A stretch of DNA of 64,000 nt from Micrasema longulum (Eukaryota > Arthropoda > Insecta > Trichoptera > Brachycentridae): contig JAGVSM010001389.1 of the NCBI GenBank assembly GCA_022494885.1, positions 225,369 through 289,368 on the forward strand, written 5' to 3'. Positions 9,538-59,500 of this stretch are shown one piece after another. The first letter of the stretch is position 1. Every line of letters begins with the position of its first letter. A program made the translations under genes and the position numbers. The notes beneath the pieces are model-generated. The model did not search any database. It was not told the origin of the DNA and saw only the letters and a list, made by a program, of their open reading frames with translations.

Positions 9538-11871
9538 TCATTGTGGCTGTGGGTTTACCGGACTCTGCTGGGAGCCAGACTTGGTGATGACGATGGTCTG
9601 CTTTCCTCCCGGGCCGGCTTTGCCCAGCTGGAGCATGTTGGAGGGAAGGGTGATGATCTTGTTGCCGCCCATGTTGTTGGCGGCCACGAGTTTTACAATG
9701 TGCGCCCCGGGGGCCAGCGCTTGTCCGCTCTGCCCCGCCGTCGCGGGCCTGTTCTGCACCATGGCCATCTTGGGGACTGTGGCCACCGTCATGCCTGTGG
9801 AGGTCTTCACAAGCGTGACATACTGCGGCTGCCCTGAGGCCTGTCCCCCCACATTAGGGGACTTCTTGATAATGACGGGAATGCCTCCTGATCCAGAGGC
9901 GGGCCGCAGTACCGTGTTGCCCGTACTGACTATAGACGTGGGAACTACATTTCCCGATAATTGCGCCGTTTGCACTTGGTGCATTTGTCCACCTTCCATA
10001 GTTATCATTTGCGCTCCCTTGTTGGGGGTAGTGACTATCTTGTAAACGGGTGTTTTGACGTGAATATTGCTGGATTGGCCTAAAGTGGCGCTCCCCGCTA
10101 TCTGGATGCCTCCCGCCGTTCCGGCCACGACGGGAAGGACGGTCTGGTTGAGTTTGACAGGCACTCCACCAGCCGATAGCTTTCCCTGGAGATTGATTAC
10201 GCCGGAGGTGACTGGCATTCCTCCGGCCGTCTTTAAGAGAACATTGGAGGAACCGATCTTCATGGGGACTGTGCTTCCTATCTTGACTGTGCCACCCGCT
10301 GTGACCTTGGCTGCGCCGGGGGACGATACAGTCACCTTCTGTACATTCTGCATTCCGGGACTGTTAATTTTCAGAGGAACTCCGGTGGCGAGTTTCACAG
10401 GCATATTTCCCGTTCCTAGCTTGACCGGAACGGCGCCGGTGACTCCCGTCTTAACTTGCACATATCTAGGTCCCGCCGCCGTACCCGGAGATCCGGCGGA
10501 GCTGATGAGAAGTTGCGCGCCCCGGTTGACCACGTTGGTCACCCTTTGGACGCCGGTGGCAGGGCTCGCCGCAGACACGCGGCTGAGGGGCGCCACGGCG
10601 GCCACCTGGGCGGGCTGCGGGGGTGGGGCGGGGGGCGATAAAGGCGCGGGCGCAGGTGCAGGCGGGGGTGCAGGTGCCGCACGCGGGGGCAGGGGCCCAC
10701 AGCGCTGCAGCTGCAGTAGAAAGGTGCCCACAGTAGACTGCTGAGGCCAGGACAGCTCCAGGCTGTGGGTACCGGCACGCACTAGCTGCACGCGGCCGGC
10801 CGGCGGAGGGGGGCTGACCTCCAGGTACCACAAGTCCTTGCAGCAGATCTGGTTGTTCCACGTCTTCCGGTAGCCGTCTCGGCCGGACCAGATGTACAGG
10901 CGGGTCTGGATGGCCACGGCGCTGTGGCCGGCACGGGCGCGCGGGACGCAGTCCTCGTACTTGTCCATGGAGATGCCGTCCCAGCGCAGCGTGTCCAGAT
11001 TGAGCGAGGCGAGGGTGTTGGTGCATTTCCACTCCTTCTCGTGCGCGGAGATCTTGGTGTCGTCGGCCACTAGTGGCACCCAGCCCCCATACACGTACAT
11101 GTAGTTGCCGATGACGGTGGCGGTGTGCAGCGAGCGTGGAAGCGGCGTAGGGCCCCCCAGCGAGGGCCGAGACCAGCTGGATGAGTCCGTATCGAGGATC
11201 CACAGATCCCCCAGCCGGAAGCCGCTCATGCCGCCGTAGATGATGAGAGAAGACTTGCCCTTTACCTTGTCTGTGTACGCCACTCCGCTGTGGGACTCTC
11301 TGGGTGGCGGAGCTTCACCGTGAGTGATAGGAACGTTCCAAGCGGTGGTGGAAGAGTTAGAAAACAGTTCTAGCGTGTATAGATCGTTCAGATATCTGGG
11401 TATATTGTTTTTCGGGTCGTCGCTTTCGTTGGCCAGTCCGCCGAATAAATAAACCTTGCCATTAAGAAGTGTGAAACTGTGTCCCAGCCGCGGACAAGGT
11501 GGCGGATCTTGTTTCGGAGGCCGCGGCTTCAGACGCTTCCATTCCCAGCGAGACGCTTGCAGTTCGTACAGGTCATTTGAATATTTTCCGTACTCCACCA
11601 TGCCCCCGAAGACGAGAAGGCGTGTTCCGTCCACGACGAAACCGTAAGCTGCGCATCCCGGAGGAATTTCTCCTTTCGTGACAGGGACAAACCATTGGTT
11701 CGTTGTCGTGTTGAAGACATGTAATTCGTGAACGATACCTTCGTTGCCGCCGCCGAAAACTATCATGAGATCTTTGATAGCGACTGCCCTGTGTCCATGA
11801 CGAGGTCTAGGCTGGGGACCTGTCGGATTATTCACTTTTTTCCACTTAAGAACGGCGACTTCCTTCATCAT
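9538..11871 (-). CDS. Hcf: Host cell factor (Hcf), kelch-domain chromatin cofactor
   Basis: A single uninterrupted frame of 777 codons starting MMKEVAVLKWKKV. Residues about 15-365 form the kelch beta-propeller, with repeated GG turn motifs such as VFGGGNEG, LVFGGMVEYG, YLFGGLAN, IYGGMSG and YVYGGWVP. Residues about 365-405 (PPPPAGRVQLVRAG, then SLELSW) are the N-terminal fibronectin half (SAS1N). A proline/alanine-rich linker and a long Gly/Val/Thr/Lys-rich basic region follow to the end. HCF proteins are nuclear scaffolds that bring histone-modifying complexes to promoters. The gene is far richer in G+C than its surroundings. The frame stops after ITKSGSQQSPVNPQPQ, without the acidic region, SAS1C and nuclear signal of full-length homologues, so either a downstream exon was missed or the protein is truncated. 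The start is the first of two consecutive ATG codons; it has the canonical kelch N-terminus. Confidence 0.93.
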   Translation of the reverse strand: MMKEVAVLKWKKVNNPTGPQPRPRHGHRAVAIKDLMIVFGGGNEGIVHELHVFNTTTNQWFVPVTKGEIPPGCAAYGFVVDGTRLLVFGGMVEYGKYSNDLYELQASRWEWKRLKPRPPKQDPPPCPRLGHSFTLLNGKVYLFGGLANESDDPKNNIPRYLNDLYTLELFSNSSTTAWNVPITHGEAPPPRESHSGVAYTDKVKGKSSLIIYGGMSGFRLGDLWILDTDSSSWSRPSLGGPTPLPRSLHTATVIGNYMYVYGGWVPLVADDTKISAHEKEWKCTNTLASLNLDTLRWDGISMDKYEDCVPRARAGHSAVAIQTRLYIWSGRDGYRKTWNNQICCKDLWYLEVSPPPPAGRVQLVRAGTHSLELSWPQQSTVGTFLLQLQRCGPLPPRAAPAPPPAPAPAPLSPPAPPPQPAQVAAVAPLSRVSAASPATGVQRVTNVVNRGAQLLISSAGSPGTAAGPRYVQVKTGVTGAVPVKLGTGNMPVKLATGVPLKINSPGMQNVQKVTVSSPGAAKVTAGGTVKIGSTVPMKIGSSNVLLKTAGGMPVTSGVINLQGKLSAGGVPVKLNQTVLPVVAGTAGGIQIAGSATLGQSSNIHVKTPVYKIVTTPNKGAQMITMEGGQMHQVQTAQLSGNVVPTSIVSTGNTVLRPASGSGGIPVIIKKSPNVGGQASGQPQYVTLVKTSTGMTVATVPKMAMVQNRPATAGQSGQALAPGAHIVKLVAANNMGGNKIITLPSNMLQLGKAGPGGKQTIVITKSGSQQSPVNPQPQ

Positions 11872-11899
11872 TTTTATACATTTGTCACAGCGCTTTCTA

Positions 11900-12789
11900 C
11901 CGTGCGTATTCCATAGATGACCATAGAAACGGAAAATTTGAAGCTACAACAATATAATGCGTTTCCATAGAAGATTTTAAACATAATAAGTTTGCTCTTT
12001 CATCTTTAGTGGTACAAGAGTTGGTGACAACACTTGTTTATACCACGAAAAAGCTTATAATGTATCGCATGATTTTCGTTAAAAAGCACAGGCTGAGTGG
12101 AATCTGTTATTTTCAACCAATTATAAAATGTCAATTTAAAATTTTTGCTTTACGGTAGGTACTGGTAAAAGTAAAAATAATTGCAAATCGTCCCATAGAA
12201 GTCTATAAAAACGTAAAAAAATAAACTCCTACTAAGGTAACAACACGAATTAATACAAACCATATTTTTTCTGGAAAGGACGCTTTAACACATCTTTTTA
12301 TATAACCTCATAGAATTATATTATTAATTCTATGTATTACCAATACTTTGTTATTATTGCTATAATTTTGTGTTTTTTTTTTAATGACGATACTTATTCT
12401 TATTATTAAAAAGAAGAAGTATGTTGATATTTGCAAAACAAAATAATAAATAATTTTGCGGCCGTGATCCATGGGATTGTGGATCAAATACATAGTAATC
12501 TATAAATATGAAAGCACGACAATTTATTATATGAATCGTAAACGTATAAATGTACATAGTAACAAGTAGGTAAGTAATCTTTAATAATTGTTCACAGCAT
12601 GCACGCATGCAAACTGACCGAAAAACAACATGAGATTTTTCAGACACGTATTTTCTATATTTACGAGAGATTATTTTGCCTAACATGAACATAAGCACTT
12701 AAGTACATATTAAAACCTATCATATACACAATGTAATTTTGTAAATTTTAAAAACATTAAACTTTTTTTAACCCTTTATGATTGGAATG
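11900..12789. other. Upstream region of Hcf, non-coding
   Basis: AT-rich DNA immediately 5' of Hcf, expected to hold its 5' UTR and promoter. No distinct core promoter motif or additional exon is convincing. Confidence 0.3.
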
Positions 12790-15280: not shown

Positions 15281-15559
15281 TATTTGTTAGAACCACATGA
15301 ACAGTTTAATGACAAAAATAGATTATAATCTTGATAACAATATCAATAAAATTCCTTGGTTAAGTTTTATCATTCTTTTATTTGACCAACGAGCGCTTTG
15401 ACTTAAGTTCAGGACTGGTAAATCGTTTACAACATTTTCAACTTCAATACAATTTTTTGACAAGGTTTTGAGAGATAAGAACATCTGGTAAGTATTTTAT
15501 TTAGGAACAGCCAACATATAATTAGTCAAAACATTTAAGTTTGTAAGGTAATTGTCTTG

Positions 15560-16685: not shown

Positions 16686-17721
16686 AGTTAGTTTGCAAAA
16701 TAGTTGATTTTTATGATAGGAAAGTTTGTCATTGGACTAAAATTAGTAATTCGAACTTAGGTGAAAGCGTTCATTGGTCAAATAAAACTAAATAAAATTT
16801 AACCAACAAATTTTAAACTTTTATCAAAATCATTAACTATGGAGTTTTATCAAGAAATATCTACAAAAGATATTAATATTACAAATCTAGAAGTTCCACT
16901 GTACTGCTTTTTAAATATACATATTTATTTACTTATTTATTTTCTTTTGTTTGTGCCAATAAAAATAAAATGAATGGCTATGTTGACTAGTTTTCCATCA
17001 TAGTACTGACATTTATTCAGCTAGGTAAATGAAACCTTTAGAACATGTCAATGACCAGGTATACTTATCGTAATTTTCAAAAGAAGATGAGTTTGGTACC
17101 AAAGAGATCTCAGGATTTTTTTTACCACGAAAATGATGATTGTACTCCGCACTCTTTAATTAAAATTGTTATTTTATTTATTTTGAAGGTGGTGAGGTTT
17201 AGGCTGTGGTGTGAAAGATGGGTGCTATCCACCGTTTCAATGGTGTTACAGAAATGTAATATTGACATTCTACAACCCCTGTGTTTGTGAGCTGTCCGTC
17301 AACCCGACATAACTCCAATAGAAGGTATGTTTTATTTATTTCGTCATGATCGTAGAACAAAGACGTTCTTTATATTTGATCTTGTATAGGTTTTATAAAG
17401 GCTTTATATTCCAGGTTTTAAAAAAATTAAATACATAAAACTAACCGCTCTTATGTAAAGTTGAAGGAAAACACATGCGAGTGACGATTTAGTTCATGTA
17501 TGGTTAACAACTCGGTACATTTTTTGTTCAATGGGTGTTAACGTGTTGTACTCTATATTATTTATAAAAAGAAAACACGGGTCCTTACACTATAATTAGT
17601 GATTATTACCTTTATGTATTTATGTATATCAATTCATAAAAGCAGAGCCAGACCTATCATAGGTTCAGTTTGCAAAAAGAACCAGACCCTTGCTTACAAG
17701 GGAGGGGAGAATAATATCGCG

Positions 17722-21615: not shown

Positions 21616-24600
21616 TTAATTGTATTTTTGAGAAAAGTAATTCATCATCTGGACAATATCATTATTCAGAAGTGCATCAATGTTCTTTGCATACAAAAAG
21701 TCTAGATGGTTGAATTTCTCATATGGTATTGCCTTGTCGTGGACTTCGGGGGATGTTTTCGTTAGTTCAATTATCAATTTTTTGGAATTCTGAAATAAAA
21801 TTATGGGATATTTATAACAGTGTAATTAAATATAATGTTCAATATCAGATTTTTAGACACCCATTAAAGAATTATTTTTTGCTTTTAATTTCATAAAAAA
21901 ACTGGTGAAGTGTTTTGTAACATTTTGTAAAGATCAATTGATTAACCGTTCCAAGAATATTTCCTTCAAAAAGATTTTGAGTAGAAAAAAAATTACCTGT
22001 GATGTAGCCAGAAGATCATTTTCCCCGTAGAATATAGCCGCCGGAGCTCTGTTAGCTGTAAGATCATATGGTGGAGGTGTGGCTTGGCCATACATTTTTT
22101 TATTTTCCATTCTCCCATAGTCGAAAGCTGACAAAACATCTGGAAATCGTCCCATTAGTTTCAATAATTCCTTTCTATCTTTAATGATGATTATTTATTG
22201 TATAGGTATATCTGTTTTATTATAATATTGAATTATTTATCGAATGTTCGTAAATATTATTATATAACCACTTACCGACTTTGTGTGTCGAACGATTTCG
22301 AGACGTACCCGCCTCTTTGTCAGGACACTTACCACACCAACATGCAAATACTAAAATACACTTTAACCTTTACCATCACCGTAGTTACAGATAGTATTAA
22401 CGAAAAATTTCATAAATTACATGCAGAGTTATCGGGGGATGCAATCACCACCGCGTCTAAACATGCACTAAAAATTAGGTTGAAATGTTAAATGGTGTGT
22501 TGGGGAATGGATGGGAGTTTGGGAAGGGAAATTGCTAGAAGGTTGAAAGTTACACGATTGGTTAATTTTTAAATAAAAAAATGGGCTATATTAAAAATAT
22601 ATTTGATTATTTACTACGGGTTTATTATTTTTAAATGCTTGTTTAATGTGAAAAACCTCCGTGTTATTTAATTTGAGCCTTTTTGAGTATTTGAATGTAA
22701 ACTTACTCCTGTATCCTTATCAAAATGATGATTTGAATTCACGAAGAGGCTGATGCGTCTCGAAACCGGTACACATAAAATAGTCGGTAAGCGGTCATAT
22801 ACTACTTTATGGAGTTCTCACTGAGTGTGATTATTGAGGAATAAGTTCGTTGTTGTGGATATTAAGATTTTTACTGTTTTTAATTACCTGTTACGGATAC
22901 TTGAGAATAATGTTCCAACAATCGTAATGCTCCAGGTTGTAACTTGGCTATAAAGACCGGGTGTTTTGCCTAAATGCAGCCAAAAAAATGACACAAATTA
23001 GACTAAAGCATGTTAATAAATAGTAGAATCATTAAAATATCAACATTTGATATTCACAAGTGGATGGCAACAGGGATCAGATTTAAGGCCAATCTTGAAG
23101 TATATATTTTTCTATGATTTTACTTAACTTTTCTTACTTCCTTGCTCAATTGGAGTTTTTTTTATTAAACGTTTTAATCGTATTGTTTAAAACTGCAACA
23201 TTGTACTCTGATGATTGTTGCAACTTAAATTACTAGAAACAGAATATCATAGGCCACTAAAAACCATGCGCACGCTAAGGGCATTTCAATTCCTTATTAA
23301 TTTAAATCCAAATATATAAATTTATGCTAGTTCCCCTAAAGGATACAAAATTAAATAATAGCGCTTCCTATCGATTTTCTTTGTTCGTGGAATGTTTTTC
23401 TAATATACAACACATAGAATTAAGAATAGTCCAAAAACCGCATACGAGCATCAAACAGAAGGCGACTAAACTACTCATGAATGAGTAGTTTTACGTTTTG
23501 ACCCATTCGTTTTTTTGTAGACGTCGCTCAGTACGCAACTCCTGATTTGAATTCCACTATGCCGTGTTATGTCATTTTAAAGTGTAGAAATATTGCTAGG
23601 ATCTTAAAGAAACAGGATGGGATCTCATTTCATGTGCAATTAGCAAATGAACGTGTAAGTAGCAAATAAATTACTTAAAAATTGAATTATTTTTCCATCT
23701 GTCAGATTGTCGAAGAAATCAAAATGGACATTTCGTTAGTGTTGCCAGGGTAGTATTTTTTTTTACCTTTGTTCATCTAATGAGAAAACTAATGAAAATT
23801 GGACCTCGGATTAAACAATTCTGTGGTGGACATTTGACCGACATTATCTTTAAAACATCAAATATTATTTAACATGATATAAATATATCCGGTTTATGTA
23901 AAATAAAATTCGTTTTATATTTTAAGTTCAAAGTTCATTAATTCAATTACTCTTATTAAATGACCCTTCCCTTATCTACTATGTTGTGTCAATAAATATT
24001 TCCGCGTGCACTATACAATTTTGGAGAAATTAACAGATTGCTTTTTTTTTACCTTACATTTGTGTTATGATTATATTGTTTCCCATCATACAACGCGGCG
24101 ACATCGCGAATGCGCGCGGCGAAAGTGGGGCATAGTGGGGGGTTTTTTGGACACAGTCCGATGTGTTAAAATATGATTCTACGCTCCTTCTGAACTATTC
24201 TTAATTCTATGATACAACGTAATTTAAAAAGTTGATAGGAACCATTTCGATTAATAATGACTAGTTGAACATACCCAGTCCACTTGGTCATAGTCTTCTC
24301 CTGCGTAGTACATTAATCCCTCCATGCAAAAATTAGGCTTTCGGTCGTAGGCTGAACATGATGCTATAATTAAGTTGCGTAAATGTGGGGGGGTAAACAC
24401 TAATGGATCCAGATGCAGTACAGCAGATTTTCTCTGAAAATGTTACAAAGCTAAATGGATTAGGTCTTTTTTCTTGTACATTCTTATTTTTCTTCTACCA
24501 ATAGCATAAGCCAGTTCATTTAATTGAGCCTATTTTTCTTCCAAGATCTTAGCGAATGTGAAGCAGAGTTCTCCGGGTTTTATAATTTAACCTTACATGA

Positions 24601-33661: not shown

Positions 33662-34715
33662 GTTGCAAGGCGAAGTTTCTTGAAAATGTATGAAAGAAGA
33701 ATAAAATTGTTTTTTTTTTAAAGCGAGCTACTTTGAACGACGTTACTAGTTCATATAAGTCAACGAATGATAAGAGTGTTGTGAAAGTCAACGGCCCTTC
33801 TGCGGAACTGACCGATAAGAAGGGGAAAAGAATTTGAGACATCACACGCGGAGTAATTTCAAAAATACAAAACTTAACAAAAAAGCATAGCGCTGATAAT
33901 ACGATAAATAAAAATGTAATGACTAATTTTTTTTTCTTGTTAAATGGTTCTATAATATGCACTAAGTCTTTCTCAATCGCCCACTAAATTCATCCAATGT
34001 AGTCGAAAATTTGTCATCAATCCATGATGACAAAGATCTTTCCATCCATCACTATGCTGTGTCTTTTGGAAACAATCTTTCGTGCTAAAAATATGCTAAG
34101 CTTTTGAGCGATCACAATGAACAATAATGAACATGCTAAGTTATCGCAGTCCTAAGTCAACGCACGGTTATCTCTAAGTCAACCCTCGTATCGGTTTATT
34201 TTCTTCGTAAATAAATACAGTTCACTGGCGAAAAATCAGCGTTTACCATAAAAAATAATACAATATATTGCATTTGCAAAATAGTAAGGAGTATCTAATA
34301 TAAATAAATGAAAATTTAATTACAATTACTATGGCGACTGCTTTTCTTGACATTTGGCTTGACAACCGCCGGCTAAATGCAACAAATAGCGTGATAAATA
34401 ATTAATAAATAATAAATAAATAAAAATAGCAGTTTTGGAATATTTTCCATATTTACACCGGTGAAATTCAAATATGTGATTGCGCATCAGGATTATACGT
34501 CGCCAAACGTAAATATTTTGACATTTAATATTAAGTGTTTACGGATGTTCCATTGTGATTGCGAATACGATAAACAACCATGGTGAGATATTGTTATCAC
34601 GTCGCTTATTAGCACGTCGATATTTATTTGTAATTGAGCTACAAACATGTTTCCACAATTTCGAACATACATGTTGTATTATTTATATTTAAAGCTTTGT
34701 GGTCAAACATTTTAC

Positions 34716-35662
34716 TAAATGTTATTAAATATTTTTTTATAACCACTTACCGACTTTTCTATGTCTACCGGATTCGAGGCGTACCCGTCTCTTCGTCAGG
34801 ACACTAATTAAACCAACATGCAAACCAACATGCAAAACCCACCATACACCTTCACCATAGTTGTTACACAAAAATAGAAAACCAACACGACATGCATTTT
34901 AATAGGCATATGCACTGATTAGGAAAAACATGCTCTGATTAAATTATGAAAATATTTTCTTGTTTGAGAATTAATGAAGAAAGTAGAGGGGATGGAGGGA
35001 GGGGATAAGCTTAATAGGTTTTATAGGGTGACCATTACAGTGGAACATCGAAAATGCAATTCTTGTCCTTCAGTTTACGCTGGAAGAACATCAAGAAATT
35101 TTGATATTCGTGTTTAAGAACATTATGAGGTGTCTTCACAATAATAGTTTCTCTGAATTCGCAAATCACCTAATCAATTTAAATCATGACTTTAATAAAA
35201 ATACTGGAGTTAAAATCTTACATACAAATAATAAAGGGTTAAAAGTAAATAATATGGAAATATTTCACATTAGAAAAGCTTTAAAAAATAATGTTCCTTT
35301 GTTCAATAATCAAACAAACTTCCAATATAGTCCTTTATACGATGTTCCACTGTAATGGTCACCCTATAAAACCTATTAAGCTTATCCCCTCCCCATCCCC
35401 TCTACTTTTTAATGAATTCTCAATATTTTCATAATTTAATCAATGCGTGTTTGTCCTAATCAGTGCATGTGCTTATTAAAATGCATGTCGTGTTGGTTTT
35501 ATTTTTTTGTGCAACAACTGTGGTGAAGGTGTGTAGTGGGTTTTGCATGTTGGTTTGCATGTTGGTTTAATTGGTGTCCTGACGAAGAGATGGGTACGTC
35601 TAGAAACCGATAGACATAGAAAAGTCGGTAACTGGTTTTATACAAATATTTAATAACATTTA
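34716..35662 (+). mobile_element. Penelope-like element remnant with long inverted terminal repeats
   Basis: Inverted arms of about 330 bp (34716-35051 and 35338-35662) flank a short coding remnant. Read from 35052, the plus frame gives KCNSCPSVYAGRTSRNFDIR, a stop, then EHYE; after a frame change it continues FSEFANHLINLNHDF and ILHTNNKGLKVNNMEIFHI. This is the GIY-YIG endonuclease at the C-terminus of Penelope-like retroelements. The reverse transcriptase is missing. The right arm carries a hammerhead-like motif at 35579-35630 (plus), and the left arm its mirror at 34749-34799. It is a dead copy. Confidence 0.7.
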
Positions 35663-35934
35663 ATACATATTGTAATATATACCTTGTGTGTTTTCATACC
35701 AATGCTAATTGATTTATTGTAATTGTTTAGAATTAATATTTGTTTGCCACGTTCGTAAAGAAAATAAACACTGGTATAAAATGTTTAATTATCGCCAAGG
35801 TTAATGGATATTTTCTAATTAAAAATAAGAATATACTTACTTATTGCGTAATAAGTTTTACGAAGCTTTTGAAATGCAATACTATTTTGAGTTGGCAAGT
35901 ACGTAATATTATTACATCGGTGTTTTTTGTAGAT

Positions 35935-36210: not shown

Positions 36211-36470
36211 TCATCATCATCATTCCCTTTCCGCACCTTATGGAGCATAGGGCACTGCGTTGGTACACCAATCGCAGCGTATCTTGATCATTTTTGTTAC
36301 ATGAAGGTAAGCTGATCAGTCTTACGCTTCAGGTACCAGTCCAGGGACTGTGAAATATTCTGAAGTGAAAAAACCACTTTAAATAAATATTTCTTATCAA
36401 CCATGTCGGGAATCGAATCCGAGACCTCTTGCATGGCAGGCTAACCCGCTGACCATTACACCACGAGGCC
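36211..36470 (-). repeat. SINE family 1, full-length copy
   Basis: On the minus strand a tRNA-like head is present: GTGGTGTAATGGTCAGCGGG (box A region), GCCTGCCATGCAAGAGG (glycine-like anticodon arm) and GGATTCGATTCCCGAC (box B). The shared body follows and it ends in an ATGATGATGATGA tail at 36211. This copy defines the family: a pol III promoter from a tRNA-Gly-like gene fused to an unrelated body. Confidence 0.8.
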
Positions 36471-45200: not shown

Positions 45201-48200
45201 TATTTTTTCTTTATAAATGATGAGGGTGGTAAAAGTAAACCAAACCCGATCAAAAAAAAGTAAATGTTTATTTACAAAATTATTTAATAATTTTTGCATA
45301 ATTATAAAATTGTTATATTTATTAATTTATTAAATAAATAACTTTACAAAGATTTTAAATATGTGTTATGCAGGCCAGTTAAATAACGATTTATATTTCA
45401 TAGGTTAATCTACTTAAATACTTTTTCACAGTGTAATTTATTTTTTAAAAACTTCGTTATTAAACGCGAAAAAATTCCATAACTGGATACTATTTTGAGT
45501 AATTCACACTCGAAGATTTTTGACAGAAACAATAACCATTCAAATCTGCCGAAATAATCTTATGTGCTGTTTTGCTGTAGTAGAATACACCGGAGAGCTG
45601 TTTAAAAGTATTGCCAGTGTAAAAAAAGACATTCACTGTAAGTAAAAAAAAAAAATGGAAACCCGAAGTTCACATATGTGTACTCAGGGACGCTAGAGGA
45701 TAAGGAAGTAATAAATTAATTAGTTTTGTATTATCTAACGCTGTATTTTGTTAAAAGTAAATGAAAATCAACGAAACTCGTTGTGATATTTTCCATTATT
45801 ATTTTAATGCATTGAGTATAATATAATAATAAATATTTATTAAATTTCTCAACTTGTATTATAAATGAATATTTTTGCAATACGAAAACAAACACGTAGA
45901 ATTGCTTTTACCGCCAATTTCCGAAAAAAATAAATATAATACACCGCAAGACAAAAAAAAATACGAGTTTACCTGCTACCGCGCCCCTTGACTTTACTGA
46001 ACCCTTTTTCTAAGAAATCCTTTATCGATACCTCTTTCTTTTGTTTAATAAATTAAGGACACTATGTGTCACCTTTCTACAATATTTACATTTTAAAATG
46101 TCTCAACAGTCTTGTTTTACCCGCGTTTGAGTGAACATAACACAACAATCATGGAAAGTGCAAAGCAAATGTCGATTGCGATAAAATCCAAAATAATCAC
46201 ATTGTCGCAAGGAAACATATCTAATTGTGAAATATCTCGTCGAGTTGGGTATTCAGAAGGTGCAGTGAGGTTTTTATTTAAAAAAATCCAAGAAACTGGA
46301 TCCATAGAACGGAAAAAAGGAAGCGGACGGGGGCGCGTGACATCTGCCCGAGATGATCGCTTAATAAAAAAATTGTTATGCGCGATCGATTTTTAACGGC
46401 ACCTGAAATACACGCAGAGGTGCAGTCTACCAGCACATCAACATTTTCAGTAAAAACAGTGTCCAGGCGGCTGTTGGAGCATGGTTTCCAAGCACGGAGT
46501 CCCGCAAAGAAACCATTACTCACGGACAAAATGAAGAAGGCTAGACTGGATTGGGCGAAAGAGCACCAGAATTGGACCTTGGAGGATTGGCAAAATGTTG
46601 TTTTCTCTGATGAATCAAAATTCAACCTTTTTGGTCCAGACGGCAGAAAGATAGTTCGACGAAAACGTGTGGAAAGATATCATCCGTCGTGCGTCACTCG
46701 AACCGTTAAACATTCACCCTACGTGATGATTTGGGGGTGCATGACAGCATACGGTTTAGGACCTCTAAATTTTGTACAGGGTACGATGAATGCCATTCAG
46801 TACAAAAAAAGTGTTAAAAAAACATATTATTCCAACAATCGAGGACATTACGCAGTATACCGCGGACCCAATTTTTCAGGACGATTCTGCGCCGTGCCAT
46901 AGAGCCCGCAGTGTGAGTACAAATATATATATTTTTAAATGCATTTTGTGACCACATGATAAATAATTTATTGTTTTTTTTATAGATCAATGAATTCAAG
47001 GAGAAAATTGGCTTAAAATCGTTGACGTGGCCCGGGAATAGCCCTGATTTGAACCCGATAGAAAATTTATGGGCGATTATGAAAAAAAAAAAGTCGGGAA
47101 AAAAAAATCAAAAAACATTGAGGAATTAAAAAAAACTTAATTCAAGTTTGGGAAGAAGAAATAACATCAGAAATTTTAGATTCGCTTTACGCTTCTCTAA
47201 ATAATAGAATTTTATATGTTATAAAAAATAAAGGTGAATTCACTAAGTACTAAATATTTTTAAATGTTATAAATATGTTTAAATGTAAAATACTTTAATT
47301 TAAATAAAGCGATAAGAACCTACTTCTTAAATATGAATTAAAAAATAACATGTCTTTTATTATTCCATCACAAACACTCGACCATAAATGAACCGTTATG
47401 GGTCTCTAAGGTTCGGGTAATCTGATACCTGATATATAATGGCAATTTCTAAGTACAATTCATGAGTAAGATTTTTATTTTAACCTTGAAATAACGAGTA
47501 GTCATCACATATGTCAAACAATATAAAAAAAACTAATTAAATATCAAGAATAATTAATTATATGTCAATTTTAGTTTTTTTTGAGAACTCGTAAATTTAT
47601 TTGTCTTGCGGTGTATATGATAGTGGCAGAAGTTTGCCTATTATCACTTCATAAAATTCTTATTATAAAAAAATATTGCATTTAGAAACACCGGGCTTCA
47701 GAAATTTCCACTAAATGGGATCAAGAAAACAATAATCGCCCCTGAATATCAATGAAAGAAAGTAGTAGTAGTAGTATCTAATTTATGTTTTTTTTTATTA
47801 TTGCGCGATTAAAAAAAAAACATTCGGTTTGAAATCGCAAAATCGTATGATTTCCTAATTTTGCGTTCGTTTTACCAGACTTCAGCCTTAATACATCGAA
47901 ATGTCTGCCAGTAATAAAGAGTTAAACCATTACCCCAAATCCACTTTTAATAAATCCGTTTGACAAATTCTTAATGGCTGGGCCGAATGCGGGCACAGGC
48001 GCTAAGGCCGTGAAGGATGCAATGCGGCGTGTCATGTCAGGCCGGGCACTGCACATGATGAAGTAGGAGGTAGTCCCGATGCTAAAGCCGATATAGTGCA
48101 CGCGAGCGCTGCCCGTGATGTTCAGCACGGTCTCGATTGTCGCTGACGTGTCCAATCTTCCATACTCGTCCAAACTGGAAAACGAGGATTTTTAAAATGC

Positions 48201-56556: not shown

Positions 56557-59500
56557 TCAATTATATTTTTGTGAAAAGTAATTTATCGCGATCACAATAT
56601 CGTCGTTCAATAGCGTTTTAATGTCCTTTGCCCATAGAAAGTCTGCGTGGTTGAATGTCTCGTACTGTACTTTTAAGTCGTAGACTTCTGGGGATGTTTT
56701 TTTGAGTCCAATGATCAAATTCGCAGCCACCTGTAAAAATTAAAAAATCAGTTAATTAACTAAGATACCTATGTTAATATGAAGATACTATAAAGATACC
56801 TATGTTAATGTTACGTTATCATCATGTATCATAAATGTACATTATGTTGGAGATGATGATGATGATGCTGTAAAATGACGCTTTCTGTGTAAATTAAATG
56901 AATAAATTATTACGTACCTAAAAAAGTGTTTAATTGTTAACAGATTGAGTTAGACATTGAGGTCCCATTGTCTGTAGGTAGGTTCTCCTACCTAAATGCT
57001 GTTTCGATAGTATATGTAGGTAGGGACCGTCAAATCAATAGATACAAAATAATACTTTTGGTCGTAACTCGCTTTATTTATTTATTTATTAATTTACACG
57101 CCCAACGGGCTTTTACATATATTAGAAATTACATTCAAGTGCAGCAGTGAAACATAAGTATGTAAATTTAGTTAAAATTAAAGATAACATAAGAAAAACT
57201 AAAAGATACCATAATAAGTAAAAATAAGGAAATGTACCAACATAAGTATATGAGTACATAGAAAAATATTTAATAAATTTACATATGAAAACATACACAC
57301 ATACATACACATGCATATGCATACATACACACACACATATACAAATATGTATGTACATATATATATACATACACATACATGCACATACATAAGTTTATAC
57401 ATTATTATAGAGATACATGAGAAAAAAAAAGTAAATAAAGAACAATATTAAGAAATTTTATACAAATTAATTTATAACCTTTTGAATACTTAACCTATAT
57501 TTATATAAAGACAGACGAAATATATCAACTTCACCATACTCGTTACCCAGCCGGTGTAGTCTAGGTATTGGTGAATTGTAATAATAATTGTGACTGCCAG
57601 GAGATTAAAAAAATAATGTTAGCTGCCGAGTATTTCGAACAGGTACTTTAAAGCTAATAAGACCACTTAATTCCGGGACGTCCAATACGCCTTTTGCTAT
57701 TTTATATAAATTTAATAAATCATTTATAATTCTTCTTTTACAAAGAGTTGACATATTTGGTGTACATAATAAATTATCGTAATTAATATTTTCAGTGGGT
57801 ATATTAAGTTTGTAATCAATGAATCTAAGGAATTTACGTTGTACTCTTTCTAACTTTAAAATATGAACATTGTAATAGGGTGACCAAATTGTTGAATTGA
57901 ATTCCAAATTACTTCTAACTAAGGCAGTAAATAGCACTTTGAGGGTAGTGATGGAATTAAAATCCTTTACAGTTCGCTGCTAATATCCAAAACATTTCAT
58001 CGCCTTATTAGTGATGGTATCAATGTGAGGAATAAATATCAATTTTTCGTCAAAAACTATCCCCAAATCCTTTATTTGTGTAACTCTTCTCAGATTGATA
58101 TTATTAATGTTGTAATCGAATAATATGGGTTTTTTACTTCTTGTAAATGATATTACACAACACTTGTCGACATTTAAGTAAAGTTCATTTTTATGGCACC
58201 AATTGTACAGCCTTACCAAATTAGACTGAAGAACTCTACAATCGGTATCAGAGGTAACAGTTTTTGAAATTTTGCGATCGTCGGCAAAGAGAAGAATGTC
58301 TACTTTCTCAAATATCGACACAATGTCGTTAACAAAAAAAGAAAACAGTACTGGTCCCAGGTGGGAGCCTTGGGGTACCCTACTAGATGCCTCAAACTGA
58401 TACGAGTTGTAATCGAATACTTTTACTAAGATTTTCCTTGATAACAAGTAGCTTTTAAACCATTTCAAGATATTACCAGTAATTCCCAATGAACTAAGTT
58501 TGCGTGTTAAAATTGTATGAGAAACCTTGTCGAACGCTTTATAGATGTATATTAAGTTACCTCTGGTGTCGTCAAGAGATCATTCTTTCCGTAGAAGATG
58601 GCCGCTGGTGCTATGCTCGCTGTCAAGTTATACGGCGGAGGTGCGGCCTGGCCGTACACTTTCATGTTTTCTCTGGCCCCGTAGTCGTATGGAGACAGAA
58701 CACCTGCATGAAATGCATTTCTTAAACATGTAACTAAAAAAACATTTGAATAGGCTTTTCCTTTCGCTTGATAAGTAAAACAATGTTAGTTTTGCCTTGT
58801 ATTAGTTGATTATAGGCGAATTACGAACCCACCTACCACCCACGTGTTAAAAAGTCTTCGAAGGGCTGCTTGTCGTTAGCTACATTTGTTACAAAGGAAA
58901 TACTAAAATGTTTCAATTTAAATCAACTCTACGCAGTTTAAGGCTGTAGTCTGGTAAAACGCACGCAAAATGAGGGAATCATACGATTTTGCCATTTTAA
59001 AAGGAATGTTTTTTTTTAAATCGCGCAATAATAAAAAACTAAAAAATATATAAATTAGATAAAAACAATACCCTTTAAAGGTATTTCTGTTGAAAAATAT
59101 ACTTGAAAGAATTTATGTTACTAAAATATAATTACTTTTAGATCGGCAGATTACGCCATTTAAAATTTAGACCAAACTTACGTTTCAGGGATCTCAATAA
59201 AGACTAAGTATCGAACTAAAATTTGTTGCAATAATTTGAACATGAAAGTGGCCGAAGCAAAATTGTTTTTTTTTGTTTTTGAAAAGAAATACAAGCATTT
59301 TAAATAAAGTACATTTTCCTTTATTTCTACGTAAAATTATGCCTTCGGTAATACTTAAAAAAAAATAATTATCGAAATATTTTTGTTGAACCCTTTTTTC
59401 ATAGAATCGTGTTCTCTTTTTTATTTTTAAAGAAGATAATTCTGGTTGTAATATTCAATTTATTCAACAATATCTTATTAACGTTTTTATGACCTTCATA

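What the first reader, a model, noticed from the sequence alone, without database searches (positions are those of the whole stretch)
34716..35662. Penelope-type remnant whose inverted terminal repeats carry hammerhead-ribozyme-like motifs
Seen: right-arm bases 35579-35630 read CTGACGA, a hairpin GAGATG-GGTA-CGTCTA (five of six pairs), then GAAAC, then ACCGA paired with TCGGT, followed by A. This is the order CUGANGA box, stem II, GAAA box, stem III, NUH cleavage site of a hammerhead. The left arm has the mirror. Between the arms lies a GIY-YIG fragment typical of Penelope-like elements. Known: Penelope-like elements have been reported to carry hammerhead motifs. Inferred: the motif could process their transcripts. 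Stem I is not convincing in this copy.
Basis: partly seen in the sequence, partly recalled or inferred. Interest (0 to 1): 0.75.

Follow-up and report, generated by a model that had tools for sequence, protein, structure and literature searches.

The report
Dead jumping gene with decayed ribozymes
This is one old, truncated copy of a very abundant Penelope-type jumping gene whose two ends point outward like mirror images and each carry a damaged copy of a small self-cutting RNA; both features were already known for this class of element.

Summary
Window 34677-35665 is a dead, 5'-truncated Penelope-like element (PLE) insertion with head-to-head inverted pLTRs, between imperfect target duplications (14 of 16 letters).

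The arms carry a hammerhead, but not the one drawn. The genome holds 4293 sites at <=3 mismatches (control 0). Two other sequence families keep the architecture with different, still-pairing stems. Both window copies are damaged; Rfam finds no hammerhead in the window or in 5 copies searched.

Hammerheads in PLEs, inverted pLTRs and the optional tail are published. What is added here is a count: cDNA ends fall at two sites about 40 nt apart, and in 33 of 37 scorable inverted copies one end is short and the other long (p = 2.8e-6). That fits priming from both target-DNA ends and disfavours simple fold-back. Arms show no pile-up at the ribozyme cut (1 of 40 within 5 nt, 1.27 expected), so templates were apparently uncleaved there. 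No cleavage was tested.

The parts
34667..34682 (.). left target-site duplication ATACATGTTGTATTAT (overlaps the arm end by a few bases of microhomology)
   Evidence: 14 of 16 identical to 35663-35678; score 12, control scores for this locus 0-8
34677..35050 (-). left arm: inverted pLTR with the long (tail) end
   Evidence: 94% to the family pLTR consensus over 34677-35049; inverted repeat with the right arm
34762..34803 (-). decayed minimal hammerhead of the left arm; cut would lie between 34766 and 34765
   Evidence: stem I 4 of 4, stem II 5 of 6, GAAT in place of GAAA
35051..35355 (+). 3' end of the PLE ORF (GIY-YIG-type endonuclease end), frame-broken
   Evidence: translations; related copies; weak Pfam match of copy L018 only
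35340..35665 (+). right arm: pLTR in element orientation with the short end
   Evidence: 93% to the pLTR consensus over 35341-35665
35575..35616 (+). decayed minimal hammerhead of the right arm; cut would lie between 35612 and 35613
   Evidence: boxes intact, stem I 4 of 4, stem II 5 of 6, 15.2-16.2 pair broken
35663..35678 (.). right target-site duplication ATACATATTGTAATAT
   Evidence: 14 of 16 identical to 34667-34682

Best explanation
A dead, 5'-truncated insertion of a high-copy Penelope-like retroelement. The element's endonuclease cut an AT-rich target on both strands. Each free 3' DNA end primed reverse transcription inside the pLTR of element RNA: one at a short start site (consensus index about 330-350), the other about 40 nt further downstream, beyond the tail. 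The two cDNAs were joined head to head, which leaves inverted pLTRs inside one target duplication. Each arm carries the family's minimal type I hammerhead (stem I TGTC/GACA, stem II hairpin, helix III reduced to two pairs, cut at CGGTA^GACA). Both cDNAs start 3' of the ribozyme and run through it, so the template RNA was uncleaved there. In the parent element the ribozyme presumably acts on tandem transcripts, as a dimer or with protein help as published for other PLEs; in this copy it is mutated and would be trapped in a long hairpin. Shown here: anatomy, consensus motif, pairing families, two discrete end sites, target duplications. Inferred: two-ended priming and any cleavage.
For: Inverted arms in one target duplication (score >= 9 in 24 of 40 inverted copies against 9 of 240 controls). 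Right ends of 62 distinct copies: 37 at index 330-350, 21 at 370-380, none between 350 and 370, 4 lower. End types opposite in 33 of 37 scorable inverted copies, p = 2.8e-6; 34 of 38 with other bins; 2 further loci of 6 fetched showed both outer ends and follow the rule. Motif: consensus, 4293 sites, control 0, strict descriptor control 0, families B and D with other letters and kept pairs. Published support: PAc protein cuts and extends both strands and starts reverse transcription at two internal sites that bound the tail (PMC11167929, main-text section).
Against: The same paper saw no difference in start site between the strands in vitro. Four of 37 scorable inverted copies break the rule, and 22 of 62 copies have no detectable inverted arm. 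Left and right arms of one insertion are not detectably closer to each other than to other copies (7.3% against 7.6%; 169 of 1000 permutations reach the observed sharing), so a common RNA is not shown. The 'long' end is capped by the consensus length used (379). Copies were chosen by similarity to the window, which could hide copies ending at the ribozyme cut. Every hammerhead family here has an extra base before stem II, some copies read CTGGCGA, Rfam gives no hit, and the 69-nt consensus fold is not significant (z -0.98; the 46-nt core gives z -2.33, with three extra pairs across the core). The flank 3' of the motif is nearly as conserved in relatives as the motif (0.88/0.83 against 0.91/0.89).
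Confidence: 0.75

Rival explanations
1. The inverted arms arise by self-priming: a cDNA, or a copy of an antisense RNA, folds back and copies itself, so the second arm is a copy of the first.
For: Proposed for Adineta vaga PLEs because palindromes sit at the inverted junctions (PMC3846280, passages). The innermost 54 nt of the window arms are 100% complementary.
Against: A simple fold-back should end at the same site on both sides; 33 of 37 scorable inverted copies have opposite end types. The four exceptions could be fold-backs.
Confidence: 0.12
2. The conserved block is kept for something else (protein binding, reverse-transcription start, splice donor, promoter), and the hammerhead likeness does not cut.
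For: The region 3' of the motif is also conserved in relatives (0.88/0.83); a splice-donor-like GGTAAGTGG follows it; CTGGCGA copies exist; no Rfam hit.
Against: Families B and D keep boxes and pairings with different stem letters, and the random control of the descriptor was 0. Other PLE hammerheads are described as self-cleaving (PMC7761336 and PMC11167929).
Confidence: 0.15
3. One reading: a longer stem III ACCGA/TCGGT with the cut after TCGGTA.
For: The pairing exists in the window and in the consensus, and both strands of it are kept in the relatives within L009 and L015.
Against: No stem I next to that cut, while TGTC/GACA pairs next to the nearer one. No counterpart was seen in families B and D (by eye).
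Confidence: 0.04
4. A DNA transposon or MITE with terminal inverted repeats that captured a PLE fragment.
For: Long inverted repeats with target duplications.
Against: Left-arm length varies from copy to copy while outer ends fall at two fixed sites; 22 of 62 copies have no detectable inverted arm; the enclosed coding remnant is a PLE end.
Confidence: 0.02

Closest known systems
Minimal type I hammerheads of Penelope-like elements (Cervera and De la Pena 2014; Lunse et al. 2017: papers not held, seen only as titles in reference lists; described in passages of PMC6155905, PMC7761336, PMC7229834)
   Same: Type I order, helix III almost absent, located in the pLTR of a PLE, thousands of dispersed copies.
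   Different: One unpaired base between CTGANGA and stem II in all families seen here; I could not compare this with the original papers. No activity data here.
Poseidon of Anolis carolinensis, PAc (PMC11167929; main-text section read)
   Same: Hammerhead upstream of two internal reverse-transcription start sites that bound the tail; AT-rich targets; both strands cut and extended.
   Different: There no strand difference in start site was seen in vitro; here the two ends of an inverted insertion are nearly always of opposite type.
Inverted-pLTR Penelope elements of Adineta vaga (PMC3846280, passages)
   Same: Head-to-head inverted pLTRs, short target duplications, a 31-bp tail on one of the inverted pLTRs.
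   Different: Explained there by self-priming; low copy number there, thousands of motif sites here; the word ribozyme does not occur in that paper's main text.
Metazoan retrozymes (PMC7229834, passages)
   Same: Type I hammerhead in dispersed retroelement DNA.
   Different: Retrozymes are small, non-coding and mostly tandem, with canonical hammerheads; this element has a coding remnant and inverted repeats.

Membership tests
Penelope-like element with endonuclease | GIY-YIG endonuclease at the ORF end | tested here: inconclusive
   Motif clear by eye in translated copies; Pfam GIY-YIG E 0.001 but below cut-off in copy L018, no hit for the window pieces
Penelope-like element with endonuclease | telomerase-like reverse transcriptase domain | not tested
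   No copy reaching the RT was fetched; shared upstream sequence between different loci extends at most about 470 bases
Penelope-like element with endonuclease | pLTR, direct or inverted, with optional 30-40-bp tail | tested here: met
   Inverted arms in 40 of 62 copies and two end sites about 40 nt apart
Penelope-like element with endonuclease | 5' truncation and short target duplication | tested here: met
   (24 of 40 against 9 of 240 controls); the window copy lacks everything before the endonuclease end
Type I hammerhead ribozyme (minimal, PLE type) | CUGANGA and GAAA boxes with UH at the cut | tested here: met
   Consensus; 35 of 62 right and 15 of 28 left arms keep them; window right arm yes, window left arm no
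Type I hammerhead ribozyme (minimal, PLE type) | stems I and II next to the boxes | tested here: met
   All ten pairs in 32 of 62 right and 16 of 28 left arms; kept with other letters in B and D. Deviation: one unpaired base before stem II
Type I hammerhead ribozyme (minimal, PLE type) | recognised by a curated hammerhead model | tested here: not met
   No Rfam hammerhead in the window or in 5 loci
Type I hammerhead ribozyme (minimal, PLE type) | self-cleavage | not testable with these tools
   Needs an RNA assay

The most novel reading that the evidence does not exclude
PLE insertions are normally made by two-ended target-primed reverse transcription with an enforced asymmetry: one target strand starts at the upstream site and the other at the downstream site of the same tail, as if one RNA were held by a protein dimer. 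The hammerhead just upstream stays uncleaved until both cDNAs have passed it, so it acts late (releasing or resetting the RNA) or only on tandem transcripts.
Probability: 0.4. Interest if true: 0.65.

Novelty: new member of a known kind. Interest (0 to 1): 0.42.

Why it matters
How PLEs integrate and why they keep hammerheads are open questions; PMC7761336 (passages) calls the in vivo role of these ribozymes still a mystery. A genome with thousands of copies of one family makes both testable from sequence. The one-short/one-long rule is a concrete constraint on the integration machinery, and passage of cDNA through the ribozyme argues that cleavage at that site does not come before reverse transcription. 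The window copy itself is ordinary and dead.

Tried and rejected
Run-off at the ribozyme: if the RNA were cut before reverse transcription, inner ends of inverted arms should pile up at the cut; 1 of 40 lies within 5 nt, 1.27 expected. A loose excess of inner ends at index 213-238 (10 of 40, list) was seen after the fact and left unexplained.

Same-RNA test of the two arms (37 left arms): inconclusive.

Rfam relaxed: no hammerhead. MAFFT misplaced the boxes across hammerhead families, so pairs were compared in hand-registered segments, without a formal covariation statistic.

A 42-mer 3' of the cut has 3474 sites at <=3 mismatches, fewer than the 4293 of the hammerhead. This runs against the simple picture that the 3' flank is always present; faster divergence of the flank may explain it. 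The matching upstream count did not complete, so whether some copies end at the cut stays open.

The 42-mer around the hammerhead-like site at 36052-36009 (-) has no genome match but itself at <=3 mismatches. The pattern CTGATGA...GAAAGNNCTA gave 26 sites against 7 control, many of them family B.

Full report
WHAT IS THERE. Between them lies the 3' end of a Penelope-like ORF on the + strand, in two frames. The same protein end, with SGVYQLKCNSCPSVYIGRTSRNF, is found in other copies. A piece of copy L018 reaches the Pfam GIY-YIG model at E = 0.001 but under its cut-off, and the window pieces do not. Imperfect target duplications (14 of 16 identical) flank the whole at 34667-34682 and 35663-35678. 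The insertion spans about 34677-35665.

THE FAMILY. The window belongs to an unnamed 584-Mb genome in 5184 contigs. The first look found 6267 candidate places for the element and 3812 for the right arm, of which 40 each were scored. I held 70 loci at that stage and dropped 8 as duplicates, leaving 62 distinct copies. Right arms differ from the pLTR consensus by 4.2% and left arms by 4.0%. The copies were chosen by similarity to the window, so they are not a random sample.

THE RIBOZYME. The consensus pLTR, from 58 of the 62 copies, contains TGTC CTGACGA A GAGACG GGTA CGTCTC GAAA C CG G TA^GACA. In hammerhead terms (position names recalled): stem I TGTC/GACA, stem II GAGACG/CGTCTC, helix III reduced to A15.1-U16.1 and C15.2-G16.2 with a two-base loop, cut after GUA. 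This is the minimal type I form described for PLEs as lacking helix III (PMC6155905, PMC7761336; passages). The 46-nt core folds into stems I and II (z -2.33), with three further pairs across the core; a 69-nt version is not better than shuffles (z -0.98). The 42-nt motif has 2121 + 2172 sites at <=3 mismatches, control 0. A strict descriptor (boxes, stem I >= 4, stem II >= 4) gives 42 hits in 282 kb of partly overlapping loci, 0 in 20 random 64-kb sequences and 0 in the window.

OTHER FAMILIES WITH THE SAME ARCHITECTURE. A variant shared by L079, L090 and L091 changes one stem II pair from C-G to T-A on both sides. One D copy, ACAT CTGAGGA T GGGTAAT ACTG ATTACCC GAAA C TA G TC^GTGT (L064:260-311 minus), keeps all pairs with other letters and is followed by a relative of the family tail. 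Two relatives inside L009 and L015 are 74% and 64% identical upstream and 91% and 89% over the motif; but the stretch 3' of it is also kept (88% and 83%), so conservation is not special to the motif. Further points against: every family has one unpaired base between CTGANGA and stem II; 7 loci, these two relatives included, have a CTGGCGA version; the comparison rests on three families, hand registration and one D copy. Family B was not shown to carry PLE coding sequence.

THE WINDOW COPIES. Right arm 35575-35616: boxes intact, stem I 4 of 4, stem II 5 of 6, 15.2-16.2 broken. Left arm 34762-34803 (-): GAAT, stem II 5 of 6. Over all copies, boxes and all ten pairs are intact in 18 of 62 right and 8 of 28 left arms. 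Rfam recognises neither the window nor 5 copies searched. Read through as one RNA, the insertion is predicted to fold into a long hairpin (-532 kcal/mol; 20 shuffles mean -202) that buries both motifs, so this copy is not expected to cut itself.

HOW THE INSERTION AROSE. Right ends of the 62 copies fall at index 330-350 (37) or 370-380 (21), none at 350-370, 4 lower. The stretch between corresponds to the 'tail' of other PLEs, bounded in PAc by two reverse-transcription start sites (PMC11167929, main-text section). An inverted arm was detected in 40 of 62 copies. Of 37 scorable on both sides, 21 are short right/long left, 12 long right/short left, 3 short/short and 1 long/long (p = 2.8e-6). 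Other bins give 34 of 38, and strong arms alone 29 of 31. Of 6 further loci the 2 that show both outer ends follow the rule. Target duplications score >= 9 in 24 of 40 against 9 of 240 controls, so the arms entered together. A simple fold-back would have equal ends. Priming from both cut strands, each at its own start site, fits best; PAc protein does cut and extend both strands in vitro. That paper saw no start-site difference between strands, and I could not show that both arms come from one RNA, so the asymmetry is an observation without a proven cause. That a tail may sit on one of two inverted pLTRs is published (PMC3846280, passages). I found no count of it in paper searches, which cover open-access papers only.

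WHAT THE RIBOZYME DOES. The cut lies at index 284, and 58 of 62 right ends lie about 45-95 nt downstream of it; L008 ends 11 nt after it. Of 40 inverted arms 29 run fully through the motif, 7 end inside it, 4 end before reaching the cut, and only 1 ends within 5 nt of the cut, as chance predicts. So the template RNA was not, as a rule, cut there first. This agrees with PAc, where ribozyme mutants insert normally and cleavage needed the protein (PMC11167929). Selection of copies by similarity weakens this point for the right ends, and 3474 sites of a 3' 42-mer against 4293 of the motif leave room for copies that end near the cut. Action on tandem transcripts, or after reverse transcription, remains possible and untested.

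VERDICT. A real feature, correctly sensed and misdrawn; a known kind, here in a very abundant family. The end-type rule is the part worth following.

Noticed in passing
window 22243-22348 (-) and 22741-22802 (+): A second, older head-to-head pair of arms of the same PLE family (84-85% to the pLTR consensus) with decayed hammerheads.
   Followed up: partly
window 36052-36009 (-), 15318-15410 and 16753-16840: Hammerhead-like motif CTGAAGA C GCTT TTT AGGC GAAA GCGCTC next to the finding, with related sequence in an inverted pair at 15.3/16.8 kb (76%) and in L040; the 42-mer itself has no other genome match at <=3 mismatches.
   Followed up: partly
L077-L080, L088-L096, L098, L099: Family B: an abundant repeat with a minimal hammerhead; L098 and L099 are short head-to-head inverted pairs without obvious coding sequence. 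Could be a non-autonomous, retrozyme-like relative.
   Followed up: partly
pLTR consensus just after the hammerhead (right arm about 35625-35634): A splice-donor-like GGTAAGTGG follows the hammerhead in the consensus; PLEs are known to retain introns (recalled). Not tested.
   Followed up: no
L002, L007, L009, L010, L015, L036, L061: Hammerhead copies reading CTGGCGA in place of CTGACGA, including two diverged relatives; could be a core variant or a lineage that lost activity.
   Followed up: no
window 9538-11943 (-): A long ORF that looks like host cell factor 1 (recognised by eye, not searched), suggesting an animal genome.
   Followed up: no
window 36398-36470 (-): Borderline Rfam tRNA match, 29.1 bits against a cut-off of 29; possibly a tRNA-derived repeat.
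   Followed up: no
window 46357-46902 (+) and 57980-58579 (-): ORFs that look by eye like a mariner-type transposase and a LINE reverse transcriptase; not searched.
   Followed up: no
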